From contig MU858408.1 in NCBI GenBank assembly GCA_033297075.1, positions 1-12,687 on the forward strand: a stretch of 12,687 nt of DNA, written 5' to 3'. The notes beneath the pieces were generated by a model. It saw only the letters and a program-made list of their open reading frames with translations. It ran no database searches and was not told the origin of the DNA. This document shows, piece by piece, positions 979 to 11,897 of this stretch (the first letter of the stretch is position 1; each line of letters begins with the position of its first letter). Both the position numbers and the translations under genes were made by a program. The stretch comes from Rhypophila decipiens (lineage: Eukaryota; Ascomycota; Sordariomycetes; Sordariales; Naviculisporaceae).

Positions 979-980
979 AT
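959..980 (+). repeat. 9-bp direct repeat abutting the gasdermin start codon
   Basis: The unit CGATACCTA occurs twice in tandem (959-967 and 968-976), followed by a partial third copy, CGAT. The A and T of this partial copy are the first two bases of the start codon at 979. The duplication sits in the 5' leader and gives the start a favourable context, with A at -3 and G at +4. Function is unknown; it may simply be replication slippage. Confidence 0.6.
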
Positions 981-1842
981 GGCTACTCCAGTCGTCCCAA
1001 AATACCATCTGGCACCTAACCTTTCCATACCTCCCGTTGAAGCAGGGGGGATTTTGGAACTGGGCTCTATAATTGCCGACATCCCCAGTGCAGATGAGCC
1101 GATCAACAAGCACTCCGTAGACCCTATCCCCCAGTCCAGCCTTTTTTGCGGACATCAGAGAGGCTTCACGACCACCTATTCGCGCATGAGAAGTGGAGAA
1201 TATGGTCTTTGGGCCAAGTCCAAGCTATTCGGCATGGAGGGTGTTGGCGGGAAGCTAAGCCGGGCCAGCAAGCGGTCGGCTGAAGATGTTTACCACTTTC
1301 GCAGCATTGATACAATCTACTTTACGCCGTCGGCCGAGTACCTCGAGAGGAGCATGGCAAATCCTGACGTGCGTGCCTATATTAGTGGCTCTGGTTATGC
1401 CCCCGTTTATATTGTGACGGGCCTCAAGACAGCCAGGGGCCCATCTGTCAAGATGTCGGACGCTACAAAGCTGAGCATCACAGCCGAGCTGGGACTTCAG
1501 AACCGGGGAGGGGTGATCGATGTTGAATTTGGTCCCAAACTCGATACGTCCAAAAAGTTGAGGCAGGAGATGGGGTTTGAGGATTCGACCGATTTCATAA
1601 TCGGTATCCGTTTGAGGAAAGTCGCATATGCGAAGTACTGGTGGAACCGAACCCCTGGCGGTCTACGATCTGAGGAGTTTAACAAGGGCGCTACCATGGC
1701 AGACGAAACTGTGTTCAAAATGGACCATGAAAAGGTCGTTGATTTGGGTGACGGATCAGAAGGAGCTGTCCATGTGGTAGAAGAAGAAGAAGAACCAGTA
1801 GATGGACAAGTAGTCGTGACAGCTTGGGTATTGGGATCGTAG
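979..1842 (+). CDS. Gasdermin-like pore-forming cell-death protein (HET-Q1/RCD-1 type)
   Basis: The product has 287 aa and no visible intron. The ATG at 979 is the first in frame and has a good context (A at -3, G at +4); the open extension upstream begins only with non-ATG codons. The length is close to that of Podospora HET-Q1 (about 280 aa). Family-like features in order are: an N-terminal segment with IPPVEAGGILELGSII (17-32); the segment YAPVYIVTGLKTARG (140-154), which matches the conserved gasdermin strand that in animals reads like LVT..L.T; and DFIIGIRLRKVAYAKYW (205-221) at the end of the core. A short polar tail follows (222-287) with Phe234 and Phe246 and an acidic run Glu268-272. 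Fungal gasdermins are two-part proteins in which a small C-terminal tail holds the pore-forming core inactive until a protease removes it. The gene is convergent with a subtilisin-like protease gene 230 bp away, the expected partner. Family assignment is from motif recognition without a search; fold-level similarity should be tested. Confidence 0.83.
   Translation: MATPVVPKYHLAPNLSIPPVEAGGILELGSIIADIPSADEPINKHSVDPIPQSSLFCGHQRGFTTTYSRMRSGEYGLWAKSKLFGMEGVGGKLSRASKRSAEDVYHFRSIDTIYFTPSAEYLERSMANPDVRAYISGSGYAPVYIVTGLKTARGPSVKMSDATKLSITAELGLQNRGGVIDVEFGPKLDTSKKLRQEMGFEDSTDFIIGIRLRKVAYAKYWWNRTPGGLRSEEFNKGATMADETVFKMDHEKVVDLGDGSEGAVHVVEEEEEPVDGQVVVTAWVLGS
1780..1795 (+). repeat. GAA microsatellite encoding an acidic run in the gasdermin tail
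   Basis: Five tandem GAA codons encode Glu268-272 in the C-terminal tail of the gasdermin-like protein. Trinucleotide repeats of this kind can change length in frame. The tail is the part expected to keep the protein inactive, so length change here could affect regulation; that effect is inference. Confidence 0.6.
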
Positions 1843-2072
1843 TCTTGTGTGATATATAGGCTCAAAATGGAAGAGCTGAACACTGTGTGATGGGCCCCTC
1901 TCGGCCTTTACTTATGTAACATGTGAACATTTATCAGGAGTGCTAAAATACCAATAGTGACTTGATGTAAGTGTTTGGTTCGGGTCAGTCTGTTATGGAG
2001 TTGCTGACTTGACTTTTGTGTCAGATAACAGCCCCCTTCTCATATTAGGATCTTCTCCTAGAAAGAACCGAT
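1843..2072. other. Convergent 3' intergenic region between gasdermin and protease genes
   Basis: These 230 bases separate the stop codons of two tail-to-tail genes and must contain both 3' untranslated regions and polyadenylation sites. The opposing transcripts probably come close or overlap. No gene or repeat is seen here. Confidence 0.6.
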
Positions 2073-5000
2073 CTATAAGGCTCTCACGATTTCCTGTATT
2101 TCTTTCGCGATTTCCTCCGGGTCCTTCCCACCCCAAAACAGTTCTGGCTGTACATAGTCGTAGCCGTCTCGTTCTGTAGACATTCTCCTAAATATCTCTG
2201 TCATTCCATCACATCTAAACAATTTAGCCCTTTGGTTCGCCGAGAGATCACAGTGAAAGTTGGCGAACTCTAGGATATTGGCGGCGATGGCGGCAGCTAT
2301 GGGCGTTGCGAAGGATGTGCCCGACTTGTAAACTGGCTTCTTCTTCCATTCCGATCTGACCTTGACACCCAAAAAGGCGAAATTGTCGCCCTTTTTGATT
2401 GGGTTCGGATTCATGTCGCCCTTGTTGCCCATTCCATCACAAGCGTGCACGCATATGACGTTTGCTTTTAGAGCAGGCTTTGAGCGTTTTTGGTTCCCGC
2501 CTTTGTTAGATGCAGCAGCAAACATTAGCTTGTCTACCTTAACTCTGTCGATTGCAGTATCAAGTCTATCAGCACCACTTGACTCGTCATGGAAGCCCCA
2601 TGACATGGATATGATGTCGACTTTCCATTCGTTAACCGCCCAATCAATGGCCTAGTAGCAATATACCGGCAGGTGTATGTCAGCGAGGTACAAGACCGTG
2701 GTGGGCTCCAGGTTGGTTCAAATAGACTCAGGCTACTTACGTCAGCTATTCGCCCAAAATCTCGCTCATCGACATGCATTCCTTCAGCAATCTTGGCGAC
2801 ATAGAGCTCGGCGGAGGGAGCCAAGGTTAGGAATAGACGAGCGACATGTGTCCCATGGCCGGATGTGTCATGGTAATCTTCCTCCCGTCCAACCCAGCTA
2901 CGCTTTCCACGTATTCTTGACGCAGCTCCACGGAAAAACATATCACTACCATCAAGTCCCGTGTCAAGAATCGCGACTCTAATCTTCTCAGGGTTTTCTC
3001 GGATCCTCCCACATTGTATATCAGCTAATCCTAAACAGCGAGGATCTGCAGTTTGTCGCAATGCTATGATGTCGCAGAGAAAGAAATTGCTCAGCCTCTG
3101 GATCCACTGGTCCGCGAAACCCGATCTGAAAAGATTGTATCGTGTTAGCGCGGATACATGTAGCCTTGAAAGGTGTCGTTCGAAAATGTCTGGCTAATAC
3201 CTGGGGAGGTGATAGGAGTATAGAAACCGGATTAATCCACTTACATTCGATCAGCATCGTCTGTTGTATCGTCATCAAAAAATGCCACCCGGCGTTTCAA
3301 TACCACAGGTCTAGTTCCACCTCTCCGAACATTTGGGACTGAGAGACCAGGTATTCCGTCAAACAATTGGCGGGTTGGTGGAAACTTTGTCACCAGGTGA
3401 CGGTACAATGGGTTTACGATGCATTTATATAAGATGGCCAGTTCTTTCAATCGACGCTCATGCATGTGTGGGTGGTGAACATCCTCAGTCCACCTTTGGA
3501 AGTTCATGCATGCCAAGCCGATTTCTCTGTAGGGTTCTCCCAAGTCGTCCAGCCATTCTATGTCTTTGAGCATTCTGGAAAGGCGCTGTATATTGGATCG
3601 TTCATTTGTATCCCAATCAACATCTCCGTCCGTCCACCCAGCTGGACGATTTGCCTCAAGTTCTAGAATCAGTACACCAAGAGATGCCACCAGTTCTGCA
3701 AGGTGCTCGGACTCGGAGTCAGAAATATGGTTGCTTTCGCAGCCAAGCCTGCATTCGATATGCGGTCTCCAGTAATCTGAGTCGATACGCGAAGTCTGGC
3801 CGGTGAATATAAGGATGTTGGATCGATCGAATTCTGTTTGGATCCATGAGCTTCCAAATAAGTGGTACAAGGAGCAGGCAAGGAGGGCTCCAATAGTCGC
3901 ACTTGCACGCCTCCTCCCAGCAAGCGTATCGAGAAACTGTTCCAAGTTCCGCGGCAGTTCAAGTGCCAAACTGGACATTGAGTGATGGGCATCCGGATTG
4001 CCTATCCAGATCGCGCTATCGTCGAAGTACGCTCTTATCGTACTACTATCATCGCTGTTAAATATCGTGTGCGCGCAGAGCCTATGCAGTAAACTGCCGC
4101 GATCAGAGTTCGGTGCATTCGTGGACCTAGAAATTGCATATTTAGTCAAATCCAGAGCATAAAAGGTGAAAGTTAGAGACAAAGGAACGTCAGGCTGGGA
4201 TGCGGATATGCATGATCGATATGTACGTAGGATTGAGAGGTACTGTACTTACGCGATGAAGTTCACAGCAACCCAAGTGTCCGGATCTTTCTCCAAGAGC
4301 ATTTCCATTTCACGCCTGAGAAAACCAGAAAGATGGAGTCTTGCCATATGGTCTTCGTGGGGGCACGGAGTGAGAGCTAGTGATGCAAACAGCATCTCAG
4401 AATTCTTACAAAACTCCCGAGCGTGTGTTATCGATGCAATCTCATTGTCCTTGAAATCTAGCAGCACGCTCTTGACTGTTTGTTCCATGCTGGAGGGGAA
4501 AATGGCCTGGACGGAATTTGTGAAGTTCTCGATGATTCTCGAGCAATCTTGTAAGCTGTTCCGTGGCGTTGGGAAGCGGAAACATTGCCGCGGAGGAGCA
4601 GAATATGGTGCAATATTTGTCGATGCGCCTGCTTCCATGTCTCCGATCACCTTGATCAACTGCGTCTTATGTTCGCTTTGGGCGTTTGGGTTTGTAATAC
4701 CGTAAACGTCCGAGGTGTCTGCGACCTGAAGGTCATGGATATGGTTGAGTTTTGGAAAAAGACAAGCCAACTCCGATGTCTGTGTATGTCCTTGGGGGTC
4801 AGTCTGAGTCACTATGTTAGGAGTCTAGGACGGCGGAGAATTATTTTGTTCGGGATGATGCCAGGAGCCATGCGTTGAACCATGAATAGTTCGTCCCGGA
4901 CGGATAATTTTCCTGCCCGGGGGCTCTGCTTACCTGATTGACTTGGTTGTCGAGAAGGGCCTCCTCTTCTTCAACTGGGATGAGCGCAGCGTCCTCAAAA

Positions 5001-5329
5001 AGCCTGAGAAGGCGGTCCAATGCGGCAATTAACCGACCGATGGTTTCGCATTTTGTGAGTTCATAGACGTCGATCTGGTCTAACTTCGTGGGAATGGTAA
5101 TAATTTCGAATCTCAAAGTGGTGATCTCGTTGTCGTGATTGAGCTCATCGTCGTTGCTGGAGTCCAGTGGGGCTCCTTGCCGAAGTCTTCGACTCAAGCT
5201 AACGATGCTTGGTGGTTTCGGAGGTATAGAGCGATGGATGAGGGGATATATCCGCCGAATGAGACTGAATCGGCTCAATGCGTCGTCCAGCGTGTGCGAG
5301 CGAGGCATATGGAGCTGCTCTCTCGCCAT
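2073..5329 (-). CDS. DUF7580-like / subtilisin-like serine protease (HET-Q2-type gasdermin activator)
   Basis: Five exons: 5329-4934, 4803-4253, 4126-3245, 3125-2741 and 2651-2073. They join without stops into 930 aa. Introns are 130, 126, 119 and 89 nt with GTAAGC or GTAAGT donors, and a CTAAC branch site is visible in introns 1 and 3. The C-terminal half is an S8 protease: AILDTG gives Asp664, SGHGTHVA gives His700, AAASNKGGN gives oxyanion Asn787 and SGTSFATP gives Ser851. The N-terminal half resembles fungal DUF7580: a Cys/His segment PCPHEDHMARLHLSGF (about 278-293), ALLACSLYHLFGSSW (about 396-410), LGVLILELEANRP (about 465-477) and a segment around 515-530. There is no signal peptide, so an intracellular location is likely. 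HET-Q2 of Podospora is a subtilisin-like enzyme that cleaves the gasdermin HET-Q1; the tail-to-tail gasdermin gene makes this the likely role. The N-terminus is the least certain part: the ATG is in a weak context, a stop lies directly before it, and Met8 is an alternative start. Confidence 0.88.
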
Positions 5330-6304: not shown

Positions 6305-9300
6305 ATGGAGCTCCCAAACTCGAGCGGTGCTGGACCTCCAAGTGAGCCACCTCCAGCCGATGACGAGACAATCTATGAGATCACCGACGCCTGCCTTGAG
6401 GCATTTGAGCGACTCATACCCTTGGTTCCTGATGACCGTTTGTCATCGCAATCAAGACCTAATCTCCGCGGCCTTCGTGACGACTTCTCCTTCTGGATAG
6501 ACTACAGCGGAGCGTTAGCATCTGCGGGGGCATCCTTGGACGACAGGCTACATGGCCTTGATGAGATAAAGGGCATGGTCCTGGAACTTCTCCAGATGCT
6601 AGGCAGGAATCTACTACGTCGTAAGTGTTGACTTCTCAAAAGCCCTCAGCTCGTGGTGCTCCACGAGTCTACCTCAGAATTCTCTGTCACCATGCTGATG
6701 TAGTCTATGTCTAGTCGCGCACATCTCCAAAAAGGGCGAGACTTCAGGGGATGACTTCGACCGCTATCATTCTGCAACTGTGTCCACCCTGGATAGGCTT
6801 CATTTCCTGGCTAAGGCGATACGGAAGAGCTCTTCCAAACAACCTGATGCTAAACCATTCGAGTTCACCGAGTTCACTAATCAAGATGACGTCTACTTTC
6901 GCAACATCGCAGTCACGTATGTCAAGTTGAACTGTCCTCGAGCACGGCCTAGTCTGAGAGAGCATCTCGGCGACACCATTGCTAGGCGTAGAAGGGCCTT
7001 ATTGGTAAAAGGACGACATGCCGGGAAGCTCAAATCGAAGCGGAGAGGTCGCTCATCAGCCAGGACGGACACGCAAGGTCAATCTGAGCCCGCCGGCGTT
7101 AGCCATGGCTATCCCAGAAGCGCCTTCCAACCCTCCATTACGGGAAGCAAAGCGACAGAAGCATCTAAACCAGATGCTCGGGCATTGAGAAGAATTATGA
7201 AGCGTGGTGCTTTCTCTATTCAGAGCTCCGGTATATTGCAACGCGATGTGCTACTTACAATTCAATATCCAACTCCTCCACCACTCCCGCATGATGATAT
7301 CAAGCACGTGCAATGCTTCTACTGCTTGGAACCATTACCAGCAGTTGAAATCCGTAAAGGGATATCCGACGATAACAAATATTGGAGGTATGGATATCCG
7401 TGGGATGTCGAAATATCACCCTATCGTTTGAGACTATGCTGATTGACAGCTTTATGTTACTTCTAGGCACCATCTCGACAGAGATCTTCAACCATATGCC
7501 TGTCTTTTCCCCGCATGCGCCAACTATTGGTTTTCCAACATGAAAGATTGGAGCGATCATATGGACAAGTTCCACACCCCAGATTGGCCTCGATTTGTTC
7601 ATGGTACAACGTGGTTCTGTGACACGGATCATGACAAGCCAGAAGAGTTCGATAATGAGAGCGAATGGGCAAAGCATATGATGGAAACAGATCTTCACCC
7701 CAGTCATGAAGCAGAGCCAAGTGAGGAGCAGTTGAAGGTCCTTGCTGGTAAAAAGCAGCAAATTGCCCTCCGTGACCCCGACACTTGCCCTTTTTGCGAG
7801 AGCAAACCATACTCAATCGCTGTCCTTGGCGACAAGGGAAACCCGGCAGATAAAGCTATTTCCTTGACTCAACACATTGGAGCTCACGTCAAGGCGCTTT
7901 CGATGCTAGCATTTCCTAGTTTAGCATGTGCGGCCGACCCAGCTAGTCAAGAGGAACCGGGCTCAACTGGCAATTTGGATGAAAGCAAGAAGAGTACTGT
8001 ATACTCTGGTTTTCCAACACAACCAATCAGCCATGGAGGAGACTTAGAAAGCACATCTCTTGTGTTTTTTGATGACGAGCAAGAGGCTAGAACGGAGGAC
8101 GGTATCTCTGCTAATCCTGCCGGTGCTCCAAGCCACATGATCGCCGAACATAATGACATAACAGTCCCGGATACCGGGGAGGAATTCTCTTGGCATGAGG
8201 TTCCGTTGCCCGAGCTTTCCCAAGATCCCCCATGGGAGCCTCTCCCATCGACAGGTCAGTGGACGGCGCAGTCTGGAGGTCAGACACTTAGCACCATTCA
8301 CGACCAGGGATACGACGCCTGGTTGAAGCAGCAGGCAGAGGATCAAGAGGATGAGTCTGCATCGCGCCAGTCGCCTCGAAGCCCGACTCACGCGCGATCA
8401 CCCAGCGAATCCCGCCAGTCGACCGCAGTGCTGGTAGCGCAGACGGGCGCATTTTTTGACGCACCATGGCCATCACCACCTGCACAGCCACCACCCAGTC
8501 CTCAGGATTTCGAGACGGAGATTAGAGCAGCTCTCAAAGTCTCGGCAAGTAGGGACAAGGGCGAATATCTGCCCAATGACGCCTTCAATCGAATCGTCAC
8601 TCGTGACCGTGTTCGCCAGGAGCTGGCACGCTTGGTGCCCGAAAGGATTGCCGCTGACAAATTGGATTGGTATACCGATCAGGTCTGGCACACGACCCCG
8701 CCTGTCAACTCGAAATCGCATGACCCGCGACCTACCACTAGGAGAAAGATCTTCGCTATTCTCGCCCTGATCCAAATGGTGCCCGGCATCGTCCGCTTCA
8801 TCGATGACTCGGACGAGAACGTGCATGACAATGACCTCCCCTTTCTCCTATCTGACGGACCAGACCCAGGAACTCGCCAGCTGCAACGAAGGGGCAGGGA
8901 CGGTAACCTGTCCCCCATCACAATTGTGTCCTCATGGCCACCCTTCATGCACGAAGTGTTCAACGACTACCAATGGAAGCTGCTCCCTCCATACTTTGTG
9001 CTGAGTACCACAACAAGGCCAGAGGTCCCCCACTACAGCTTTGAGTATGGCACCGTCCTGCCGCTGATTGAGGACGAGAAAATTGCTTCGGGCAATACGG
9101 GCGGCTTTGGTGACGTATGGAAGGTCAAGATACATCCGGCGCACCACAACCGTTGTCACAATGCGTCTTCGGACAAGGATAACCCTTGGTATGCCATCAA
9201 GCGTCTCCGGCATAGCAACCGAGAGGCCTTCAGGGTTGAAGTGTCTAATCTGAAGAGATTTAGCACCAAGGACCATCTCCATATCATCAAGCTGCTCGGG

Positions 9301-10761
9301 ACATTCGAGTGGCGCAGGGAATTTTATCTCCTTTTCCCCTGTGCCGACGGCAATCTTTTCGACTTCTGGAAACTCTATCCGACCGTAACCGAGCTTCCGA
9401 GGGACCATGGCTTTGCCCTGTGGTTCTCATCCCAGTGTCTGGGTCTCGCCAAGGGTCTCAAGTCGATTCACAGCTTTGAGGTCACGCAGGGTGAGTACTT
9501 GGACATACCCCAGCATGAGCAGGACAAGACCCTCGGTCGACATGGGGATCTCATACCCGAAAACATATTATGGTTCCGTCCCGTGGGCCCCTATCTACTA
9601 CACGAGACGGACAAGGGGAACATGGGCGTGCTGAAGATTTCCGACTTTGCACTGAGTAAGTTTCACCGCCCCGCATCCGTGCGTTCGGGACAGGACGGCA
9701 ACGGCAAGTCTACGCCAGTTTCACCCCGTTACCGTGCTCCTGAGTTCGATATAGGTCAAGGCGTTGACCAGAGCTACGACATATGGACGCTGGGCTGTGT
9801 GCTGCTCGAGTTCGTTGCTTGGTATGTCCTCGGCTGGGACGAAGTTGAGCGGTTCTCTAGGAGTCGAGTGGAAGACGATTACGGAGAAATCAAGGAGGAT
9901 GTGTTCTTCAACAATGTTGAGATCATACATGAAGAGGACGAGAAGAAGGAGACGTGGACCGAGCCCGGCGCACAGGCAAAACGAGCAGTTTATGATGTGA
10001 GTGGACACATGTATGCCTAACGATCTTCAACAACATGAACTAATGACGCTGTGATGTAGGAATTCCAACTGCTATATAAACATGAACGCTGCTCCGACTT
10101 TATTCTTGACCTGTTAGACTTCATCGAAGACAGGCTTCTGCGAATAAGGCCATACAAGCGAGCCAAGTGCGACGAAATCGTGGACAAGCTGACTTCCTTG
10201 CACAAGACATGCCAAGAAAACAACAGATACTGCACAGAGCGGCAGAAGTTAGACTTGCGCCGTTCGCGAACCGATCTTTCTCTGGTTGCGTCTTCCGCAT
10301 TACCGTATTCCGACAAGCAGAAGAAGCGGATCCATCAGAACGCCGTACCCAACATCCATCCCCAGCCTATCTTTCCAAGCGTAGCATCCCAGCTCGCCGC
10401 AGCGGGTCTGGTTCCTTCTACATCGCGCACTGAAAGATACAAGGAGGGTATAAACAGCATATTTAGTGATAGGAAGGACGAGCACAACACCCCATATGAA
10501 TCTTTCGGGGAGCTGGCGACGTCGTCGGCAGCATCAATCCCGGTCCCCAGCTTCACCATTACAGTATCACCCCCTCCATCCAAGTTCACCACTACAACAT
10601 CAACAACCCCTCCACGGAGCTCTTGTACCGAGGACACCAGCAATGACACCGGCAACGACACCGCAGTTCCCTTCGCGCAGGCATCTACAGAAGCTACACC
10701 AAGTAGTTCACAGCAGAAACCAGCGAGACGGGAGCGATGGTATAAGAGGATTCTGCGGTGA
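6305..10761 (+). CDS. C2H2-like zinc-finger array protein with atypical C-terminal protein kinase domain
   Basis: Four exons: 6305-6620, 6715-7387, 7467-9996 and 10060-10761, giving 1406 aa. Introns are 94, 79 and 63 nt with GTAAGT, GTATGG and GTGAGT donors. Residues 1-300 are an acidic N-terminal region followed by a basic segment (about 200-220). A Cys/His array follows: Cys306/309 with His331/332; Cys342/347 with His361/366; Cys381 with His400/407; Cys437/440 with His466/470. This pattern, including LQPYACLFPAC, is common in N-terminal regions of fungal NLR-like and kinase proteins. A Ser/Pro-rich linker (about 625-645) precedes a helical segment (about 678-790) often found before fungal kinase domains. 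The kinase spans about 865-1230: G-loop ASGNTGGFGDVW (870-881), Lys908, probable helix-C Glu921, HGDLIPEN (1022-1029), DFA (1056-1058), APE (1087-1089) and DIWTLG. The catalytic Asp1024, Asn1029 and Asp1056 remain, but HRD is HGD, the catalytic-loop Lys is Ile1026 and the DFG Gly is Ala1058. A Ser/Thr/Pro-rich tail ends in a basic KRILR. Substrate unknown. Confidence 0.88.
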
Positions 10762-10980: not shown

Positions 10981-11897
10981 AATTTATTTCGCCCGGAGGC
11001 ACTAAGCCTAAAGGGCCTATGCGCGCTAACTACATTCGGTTCATATGCTTCTGCCATAATCTCGTCCAAGCCCTCTACTCTTTCACCTTTAGACCACCCG
11101 ATGCCTCTTGTCATGTTATTAGCAGATCACCTTGGAGGTTGCCTTCTCCAAGTGTTCAGCGTCCTATCTTCAGCAGCTAAAGCAGGATCTGCTGGTTGAG
11201 GCTGCGTGGGACTCCTTGGTCCAGTTCCGTTACTGCGATGGATCTATTCTCTGCATGTCCAAATCCAATCTTCCCGTTGACATGGCATACTTGATCGTTG
11301 CCCGCACCGCGTTCATATCTGGCGACCATTTCTTGGGGTCCGATAGCGCTTTTCCTCCTAGAAAGAACGAGAGACTCCCCCGTCTTGTCGTTGTACATTG
11401 CAGCATACCTTCTCGTAAAGCCGTCCACCTTGCGCATCGTAGCAGAAAGTGATCTACAGTCTCCCTTGCGTGACCGCAATCGCATAGGTCGGATTCAGTT
11501 GCCCCGATTTTATATAGAAATCCATTCAACCTTGCCATCCCTGTCCGGAGTTGTGCAAGTATACAAGCCTCTTTTCGCTTCAGCTTGTCGTACAGGTCGT
11601 ACGTGTGTCTGCCCGGGAGCGCCACATCAATGGACTTTGATTTGTCCTCTGTAACCGTACCGTCATTTCGTGTCAGCGGAGGTATTTTGTCGCCCATCAC
11701 ACTGCTGCCAGTTTGAAGATATTTTGTTGCTTGCCAGATGTTAGTATCGTCAGCTAGGAAATCGTTCCAATGCGAGCTCTTCTGTTTGCGGATAGCATCG
11801 TGATACTCTTTCGCGGCAGTCTTTGCTCGCTGTTCTAGGTCTGGTGCTGTTTGGCCCTTCCTGCGTCGAGCTCTTGACTGGTTTCTCCAGAACGTGT
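10960..11897 (-). mobile_element. 5'-truncated, internally deleted Tad-like LINE retrotransposon remnant
   Basis: On the minus strand one frame is open from 11919 to a TAA at 11232-11230. Its first part (TFWRNQ at about 11895, then EQRAKTAAKEYHDAI, SSHWNDFLADDTNIWQATKY, DKIPPLTR) matches the linker just before the reverse transcriptase in fungal Tad-like LINE proteins. Its second part (LPGRHTYDLYDKLKRKEA, AQLRTGMARLNGFLYKIG, then a zinc knuckle CDCGHARETVDHFLLRC, SFFLGG and AVRATIKYAMSTGRLDLD) matches the extreme C-terminus after RNase H. The two are joined at about 11620-11640, so the RT and RNase H domains, normally many hundreds of residues, are absent. The right boundary (5' truncation near 11897) is inferred from loss of LINE similarity. 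The left boundary is inferred from an AATAAA on the minus strand (10988-10983) followed by a (CCAT)n tail. It cannot encode a functional retrotransposon. The frame is intact and not AT-rich, so strong RIP mutation is not evident. Confidence 0.7.

What the first reader, a model, noticed from the sequence alone, without database searches (positions are those of the whole stretch)
979..5329. Convergent gasdermin-like / subtilisin-like protease pair: a probable HET-Q-type regulated cell-death module
Seen: a 287-aa protein with gasdermin-like segments lies 230 bp, tail to tail, from a gene with a complete subtilisin triad. Known: in Podospora anserina HET-Q2 (subtilisin-like) cleaves and activates HET-Q1 (gasdermin-like), causing cell death, and fungal gasdermin genes are often beside protease genes. 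Inferred: the two products form an effector/activator pair used in allorecognition or defence.
Basis: partly seen in the sequence, partly recalled or inferred. Interest (0 to 1): 0.92.

Follow-up and report, generated by a model that had tools for sequence, protein, structure and literature searches.

The report
Fungal gasdermin with matching activator protease
A fungus carries, side by side, a gene for a pore-forming 'gasdermin' cell-suicide protein and a gene for a protease that probably switches it on, a good and apparently intact new example of a pair already known from many fungi.

The parts
979..1842 (+). Fungal gasdermin (fGSDM), 287 aa, single exon
979..1698 (+). Predicted pore-forming part (residues 1-240) up to the candidate cleavage residue Met240
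   Evidence: model residues 7-236 align with RCD-1-2; in 42 aligned proteins (the window's and 41 of 45 relatives) position 240 is M in 35 and L in 7, position 238 Ala in 42; the Phe of the HET-Q1 orthologue C347 aligns to residue 241 and a Met of C163 to 240, C345 does not align there; cleavage itself is inferred
1699..1839 (+). Acidic C-terminal tail (47 residues, net charge -11), presumed inhibitory
   Evidence: tail net charge -6 to -18 in the 42 aligned proteins; W283 in 38 of 42
2073..5329 (-). DUF7580-subtilase (Q2L-type) protease gene; exons 5329-4934, 4803-4253, 4126-3245, 3125-2741, 2651-2073; 930 aa in my model, 915 aa in the deposited one
3391..4398 (-). DUF7580 domain, PF24476 (interrupted by the second intron)
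   Evidence: E 1.6e-22; listed for 102 of the 116 proteins; kinase-like fold only weakly suggested
3271..3282 (-). Conserved [LF]-[FY]-D-D linker motif between DUF7580 and protease domain
   Evidence: D585 in 53 and F/Y584 in 54 of 58 aligned proteins; role unknown
2259..2986 (-). Peptidase_S8 (subtilase) catalytic domain, with the fourth intron 2740-2652
1843..2072 (.). 230-bp spacer between the two facing stop codons
   Evidence: the HET-Q1-like pair on C347 has the same convergent layout, 285 bp by my gene model

Best explanation
A cis-encoded two-gene cell-death module of the fGSDM-Q2L kind. The gasdermin is made as an inactive 287-aa protein whose acidic C-terminal tail keeps the pore-forming part off membranes. 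The neighbouring protein is a cytosolic sensor protease: its N-terminal helical and DUF7580 part holds the C-terminal subtilase off until an unknown trigger acts. When triggered, the subtilase cuts the gasdermin at about Met240 (Met240 or Ala241), the ~47-residue tail leaves, and the N-terminal part oligomerises into plasma-membrane pores that kill the hyphal compartment. Shown here: homology and predicted fold of both proteins, intact catalytic residues, recurrent pairing with agreeing trees, and an acidic tail behind a conserved hydrophobic residue near the HET-Q1 cleavage position. Inferred: autoinhibition, trigger, cleavage, pores, death.
For: Gasdermin: (ranks 1-19 all gasdermins). Protease. 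Pairing across species: of 25 gasdermin relatives on contigs of 15 kb or more, 11 share a contig of identical length with an S8 protein listed, 5 of the 11 with neighbouring locus tags; a lower bound, since only the 116 listed proteases could be matched. Trees of 12 pairs: r 0.89, 0 of 5000 permutations reach it (one partner chosen post hoc, see Tried and rejected). Same genome: DUF7580-S8 genes at C363, C347, C163 and C208; the first three have a gasdermin gene as neighbour. Tail. Mechanism by analogy to HET-Q1 (P1 F238, ~5 kDa tail lost, reconstitution in yeast; PMC10989679, passages). No signal-peptide-like segment: mean hydropathy near the protease's N-terminus at most 0.40.
Against: No cleavage or death data. 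The gasdermin model is modest (mean pLDDT 63.7; the tail and two central stretches under 50), so tail docking cannot be judged. The cleavage residue is uncertain by one position against C347, and C345's proposed site does not align. C208 has a DUF7580-S8 gene without a gasdermin in the 7.9 kb held, and gasdermin C345 has no S8 or DUF7580 match on its contig, so partnership is not absolute. RCD-1 works without cleavage, so cleavage cannot be assumed for every fGSDM. 14 of 25 relatives showed no partner by the contig-length test.
Confidence: 0.82

Rival explanations
1. It is a het-Q-like allorecognition (heterokaryon incompatibility) pair: the two products meet only after fusion of unlike strains.
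For: The known S8-gasdermin pair of Podospora acts this way (passages). Allorecognition genes are said to be recruited from this family.
Against: Both genes have open frames on one contig of one assembly. The protease keeps a large N-terminal part that a 388-aa HET-Q2 cannot hold in full. The HET-Q1 orthologue is another gene. Eleven other fungi have both relatives on contigs of identical length.
Confidence: 0.07
2. The gasdermin works like RCD-1, without proteolysis (partner allele or conformational trigger), and the protease has another substrate.
For: The closest solved structures are RCD-1-1 and RCD-1-2, described as not controlled by cleavage (PMC12881547, passages).
Against: An acidic tail of 25-66 residues follows residue 240 in all 42 aligned proteins, and the tree matches that of the neighbouring protease.
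Confidence: 0.08
3. The genes are neighbours by accident, without a joint function.
For: C208 and C345 show that each gene type can occur without an identified partner.
Against: Repeated pairing and tree agreement, and open frames with intact catalytic residues.
Confidence: 0.03

Closest known systems
fGSDM-Q2L two-gene clusters (general class; PMC10197012, PMC12881547, PMC10989679, all citing Clave et al. 2022, which I could not read)
   Same: Gasdermin gene beside an S8 protease gene whose product has an extra domain; ~80% of fGSDM genes are reported clustered with proteases, ~60-63% with S8.
   Different: The added domain here is DUF7580; the passages I saw name WD40, TPR, ANK, NLR and unnamed 'kinase-like' domains. 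My one search for DUF7580 together with 'fungal' found no paper.
HET-Q1/HET-Q2 of Podospora anserina
   Same: Gasdermin plus subtilisin-like protease; a C-terminal tail of about 5 kDa; a hydrophobic residue at about the same place.
   Different: Not the HET-Q1 orthologue (that is C347); genes in cis instead of idiomorphs; protease 915-930 aa against 388 aa.
RCD-1-1/RCD-1-2 of Neurospora crassa
   Same: Nearest solved structures and sequences of the pore-forming part.
   Different: RCD-1 is described as acting by two allelic variants without cleavage; this protein has a conserved acidic tail and a protease neighbour.
Bacterial gasdermin-protease operons (e.g. Runella 7n52, Bradyrhizobium 7n50)
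   Same: Gasdermin fold (ranks 15-19); clustering with proteases reported for bacteria too.
   Different: Very distant in sequence (7n50 E 0.28). Lipidation and the protease types of the bacterial systems are recalled and were not examined.

Membership tests
Fungal gasdermin (fGSDM) | Gasdermin pore-forming fold | tested here: met
Fungal gasdermin (fGSDM) | Sequence homology to RCD-1 and HET-Q1 | tested here: met
Fungal gasdermin (fGSDM) | Short C-terminal tail instead of a large inhibitory domain | tested here: met
   47 residues after position 240; 25-66 in the 42 aligned proteins
Fungal gasdermin (fGSDM) | Membrane pores and cell death | not testable with these tools
   needs expression
Q2L protease clustered with fGSDM | S8 domain with complete catalytic residues | tested here: met
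Q2L protease clustered with fGSDM | Within 10 kb of an fGSDM gene | tested here: met
   230 bp
Q2L protease clustered with fGSDM | Additional domain beside the protease | tested here: met
   DUF7580; its sensor role is inferred
Q2L protease clustered with fGSDM | Cleaves the adjacent gasdermin | not testable with these tools
   needs co-expression
HET-Q1/HET-Q2 allorecognition pair | Gasdermin is the HET-Q1 orthologue | tested here: not met
   C347 gene E 1.7e-55 to the HET-Q1 chain, window gene 3.2e-5
HET-Q1/HET-Q2 allorecognition pair | Idiomorphs: one gene or the other at the locus | tested here: not met
   both on one contig of one assembly; other strains were not examined
HET-Q1/HET-Q2 allorecognition pair | 388-aa protease | tested here: not met
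   915-930 aa; 388 aa from PMC10989679
Protein kinase-like fold (DUF7580 part) | Kinase fold and catalytic motifs | tested here: inconclusive
   BFVD search of the whole protease model: 13 of ranks 18-37 are named kinases, best E 1.7e-3, but the answer does not say which part of the model they align to; hhalign to the window's own kinase aligns 30 columns, probability 5.7; phmmer of one paralogue against PDB finds no kinase

The most novel reading that the evidence does not exclude
DUF7580 is the sensor and brake of a whole class of gasdermin-activating proteases. Full-length DUF7580-S8 proteins sit beside gasdermins, including beside the HET-Q1 orthologue of this same genome. HET-Q2 (388 aa) would then be a truncated, brake-less descendant of such a protein, so that an allorecognition system arose by loss of DUF7580.
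Probability: 0.3. Interest if true: 0.62.

Novelty: new member of a known kind. Interest (0 to 1): 0.42.

Why it matters
How the proteases that activate fungal gasdermins are themselves regulated is named as work for future research (PMC12881547, passages). This genome offers three gasdermin/DUF7580-subtilase pairs, one of them with the HET-Q1 orthologue, in a fungus of the same order as Podospora (Podospora's order recalled). That makes the sensor part directly testable: remove DUF7580 and ask whether the protease becomes constitutively active, as one review proposes for HET-Q2.

Tried and rejected
DUF7580 part against PDB: phmmer of the C347 paralogue gave 7 matches up to E 10 (best RBL4, 1.3e-5; collagenase ColH and others) and no kinase. 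Pfam scan of the 58 aligned proteins gave no kinase model among its 19 families. The VIA second look with the whole protease was filled by subtilisin-like chains and spans residues 580-910, so absence of kinases there says nothing. A search with the C347 protease, hoping for HET-Q2, returned 6 proteins at E 1e-30 or better, none named as Podospora; only the 7990 best candidates were scored. The three paralogous gasdermins searched against the own genome gave no fifth gene (counts there are lower bounds). CHAT proteases: 9 matches, none on the four gasdermin contigs. A shared cleavage motif in C345 was not supported by alignment. phmmer of the C345 gasdermin against PDB found nothing up to E 1; for C163 the only gasdermin was RCD-1-2, at E 0.005.

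Selections that I made: alignment A1 holds 42 of the 46 proteins (P0018, P0036, P0037, P0039 left out); alignment A2 holds 58 of the 116, taken from the top and leaving out P0089, P0092, P0100 and P0104, three of which have no DUF7580 in the listing. So 'DUF7580 in 58 of 58' is partly my selection; over all 116 listed, 102 carry it in the precomputed column (the query itself contains DUF7580, so the list leans to it).

Trees: my first partner for the F. oxysporum gasdermin (P0048) gave r 0.85 (0 of 5000), and 0.66 without the outgroup (6 of 5000 permutations reach it). I changed to P0056, on a contig of the same length, after seeing the tree: r 0.89, and 0.80 without the outgroup (0 of 5000 both). 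Remaining disagreements: the order within the Xylaria group and the place of F. piperis (57/30 support in the protease tree). None of this removes shared species history.

Full report
WHERE IT IS. The window is a whole contig (C363, 12,687 bp) of a 45.7-Mb assembly in 408 contigs. A deposited protein 99% identical to the window protease is named Rhypophila decipiens, on a contig of the same length (P0047).

PAIRING IN OTHER FUNGI. Of 25 gasdermin relatives on contigs of 15 kb or more, 11 have a protease from the list on a contig of exactly the same length. In 5 of these the locus tags are neighbours: F. piperis N0V84_001223/001224, T. guizhouense A0O28_0032040/0032030, T. atroviride TrAtP1_003781/003782, X. 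multiplex GQX73_g10400/g10399, P. subalpina PAC_08354/08353. The misses (14 of 25) include cases where the partner may simply not be among the 116 listed. Trees of 12 pairs agree: distance correlation 0.89, 0 of 5000 permutations. The Fusarium oxysporum contig has two DUF7580-S8 genes, and the one that fits the tree (P0056) was chosen after the fact; with the other (P0048) r is 0.85. In both trees Colletotrichum kahawae groups with Ilyonectria, so the pair may travel together whatever the species tree.

PAIRING IN THIS GENOME. Protein searches found four gasdermin genes: the window's, C347:13341-14204(-), C163:20159-21217(-) and C345:12168-13100(-) (ranges as queried, so the start codons of C347 and C345 lie one codon further out). 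DUF7580 (19 matches) and S8 (38 matches) coincide in four genes: C363, C347, C163 and C208. The first three neighbour a gasdermin. On C347 the layout is again convergent, with 285 bp between stops; on C163 both genes lie on the same strand. C208 has no gasdermin in 7.9 kb; C345 has no S8 or DUF7580 match on its contig, whose end lies about 2 kb away. Ten further S8 loci read as stretches of 8.6-9.9 kb (L034-L043) gave no gasdermin match up to E 10 except one (C248), a fragment at E 0.05 that by eye resembles RCD-1. The remaining S8 loci were seen only with 1.5-kb flanks.

WHICH ONE IS HET-Q1? The C347 gasdermin matches the HET-Q1 chain at E 1.7e-55. The match runs to the chain's last residue, a Phe, which aligns with a Phe at query position 238 (239 counting the start Met). 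The reported P1 residue of HET-Q1 is F238 (PMC10989679, passages). So the narrow HET-Q1 orthologue is C347, and the window gene is a different subfamily. The protease beside C347 is also a full-length DUF7580-S8 protein (deposited as P0163, 1081 aa). HET-Q2 is described as 388 aa, and the iScience review proposes for het-Q1/het-Q2 a rearrangement leaving a constitutively active sensor (PMC10197012, passages). A DUF7580 brake that was lost would fit, but I could not examine HET-Q2.

THE TAIL. In the 42 aligned proteins residue 238 is always Ala, residue 240 Met (35) or Leu (7), followed mostly by an acidic run; the tail after 240 is 25-66 residues with net charge -6 to -18. Aligned with three MAFFT modes, the HET-Q1-orthologue Phe falls on residue 241 and the C163 Met on 240; C345 does not align there. 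I predict cleavage after 240 or 241, releasing 46-47 residues, close in size to the ~5 kDa HET-Q1 tail. Masking of the membrane-binding surface by the acidic tail is inference.

DUF7580. My one search found no paper that holds DUF7580 with 'fungal'. A kinase-like fold is suggested by viral kinases that follow the subtilases in the BFVD list (13 of ranks 18-37, best E 1.7e-3; which part of the model they match is not shown) and by an 'LG-LLLELE' stretch (likeness to kinases recalled). Sequence tests were negative or weak. The Cell Death Differ. review says fungal gasdermin proteases can be fused to 'predicted kinase-like domains', so this architecture may already have been seen under another name.

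VERDICT. It belongs to a widespread, published kind of gene cluster (~80% of fGSDM genes near proteases, ~63% near S8; PMC10197012, section 15 read). Clave et al. 2022, the primary source, is not held, so its list of architectures could not be checked.

Noticed in passing
G000 C347:13341-14204 (L046:5742-6605, -): The genome's HET-Q1 orthologue (E 1.7e-55), convergent with its own DUF7580-S8 gene 285 bp away.
   Followed up: yes
L037:6133-6417 (C248, about 44.6-44.9 kb): Fragment that by eye resembles the N-terminus of RCD-1 (profile E 0.05), perhaps split between two reading frames, downstream of an S8 gene on the same strand; possibly a decayed RCD-1-like gene.
   Followed up: partly
L048:2759-5809 (C208, -): DUF7580-S8 gene without a gasdermin in the 7.9 kb held; a reading frame downstream (543-1768, -) looks by eye like a trypsin-like protease (not searched).
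   Followed up: partly
L049:4169-5101 (C345, -): Divergent gasdermin (312 aa, acidic end) with no S8 or DUF7580 match on its contig, about 2 kb from the contig end.
   Followed up: partly
6305-10760 +: Neighbouring gene(s) with a protein kinase domain (E 1.1e-14); its frame keeps Lys, HGD and DFA-like motifs by eye. Whether it belongs to the module was not examined.
   Followed up: no
11230-11700 -: Reading frame resembling the C-terminal part of a fungal non-LTR retrotransposon (recalled resemblance, no Pfam match), followed by a T-rich contig end.
   Followed up: no
P0008/P0054 (Colletotrichum kahawae): Both members of the pair group with Ilyonectria among Hypocreales relatives (taxonomy recalled), hinting at horizontal transfer or old paralogy of the pair as a unit.
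   Followed up: partly
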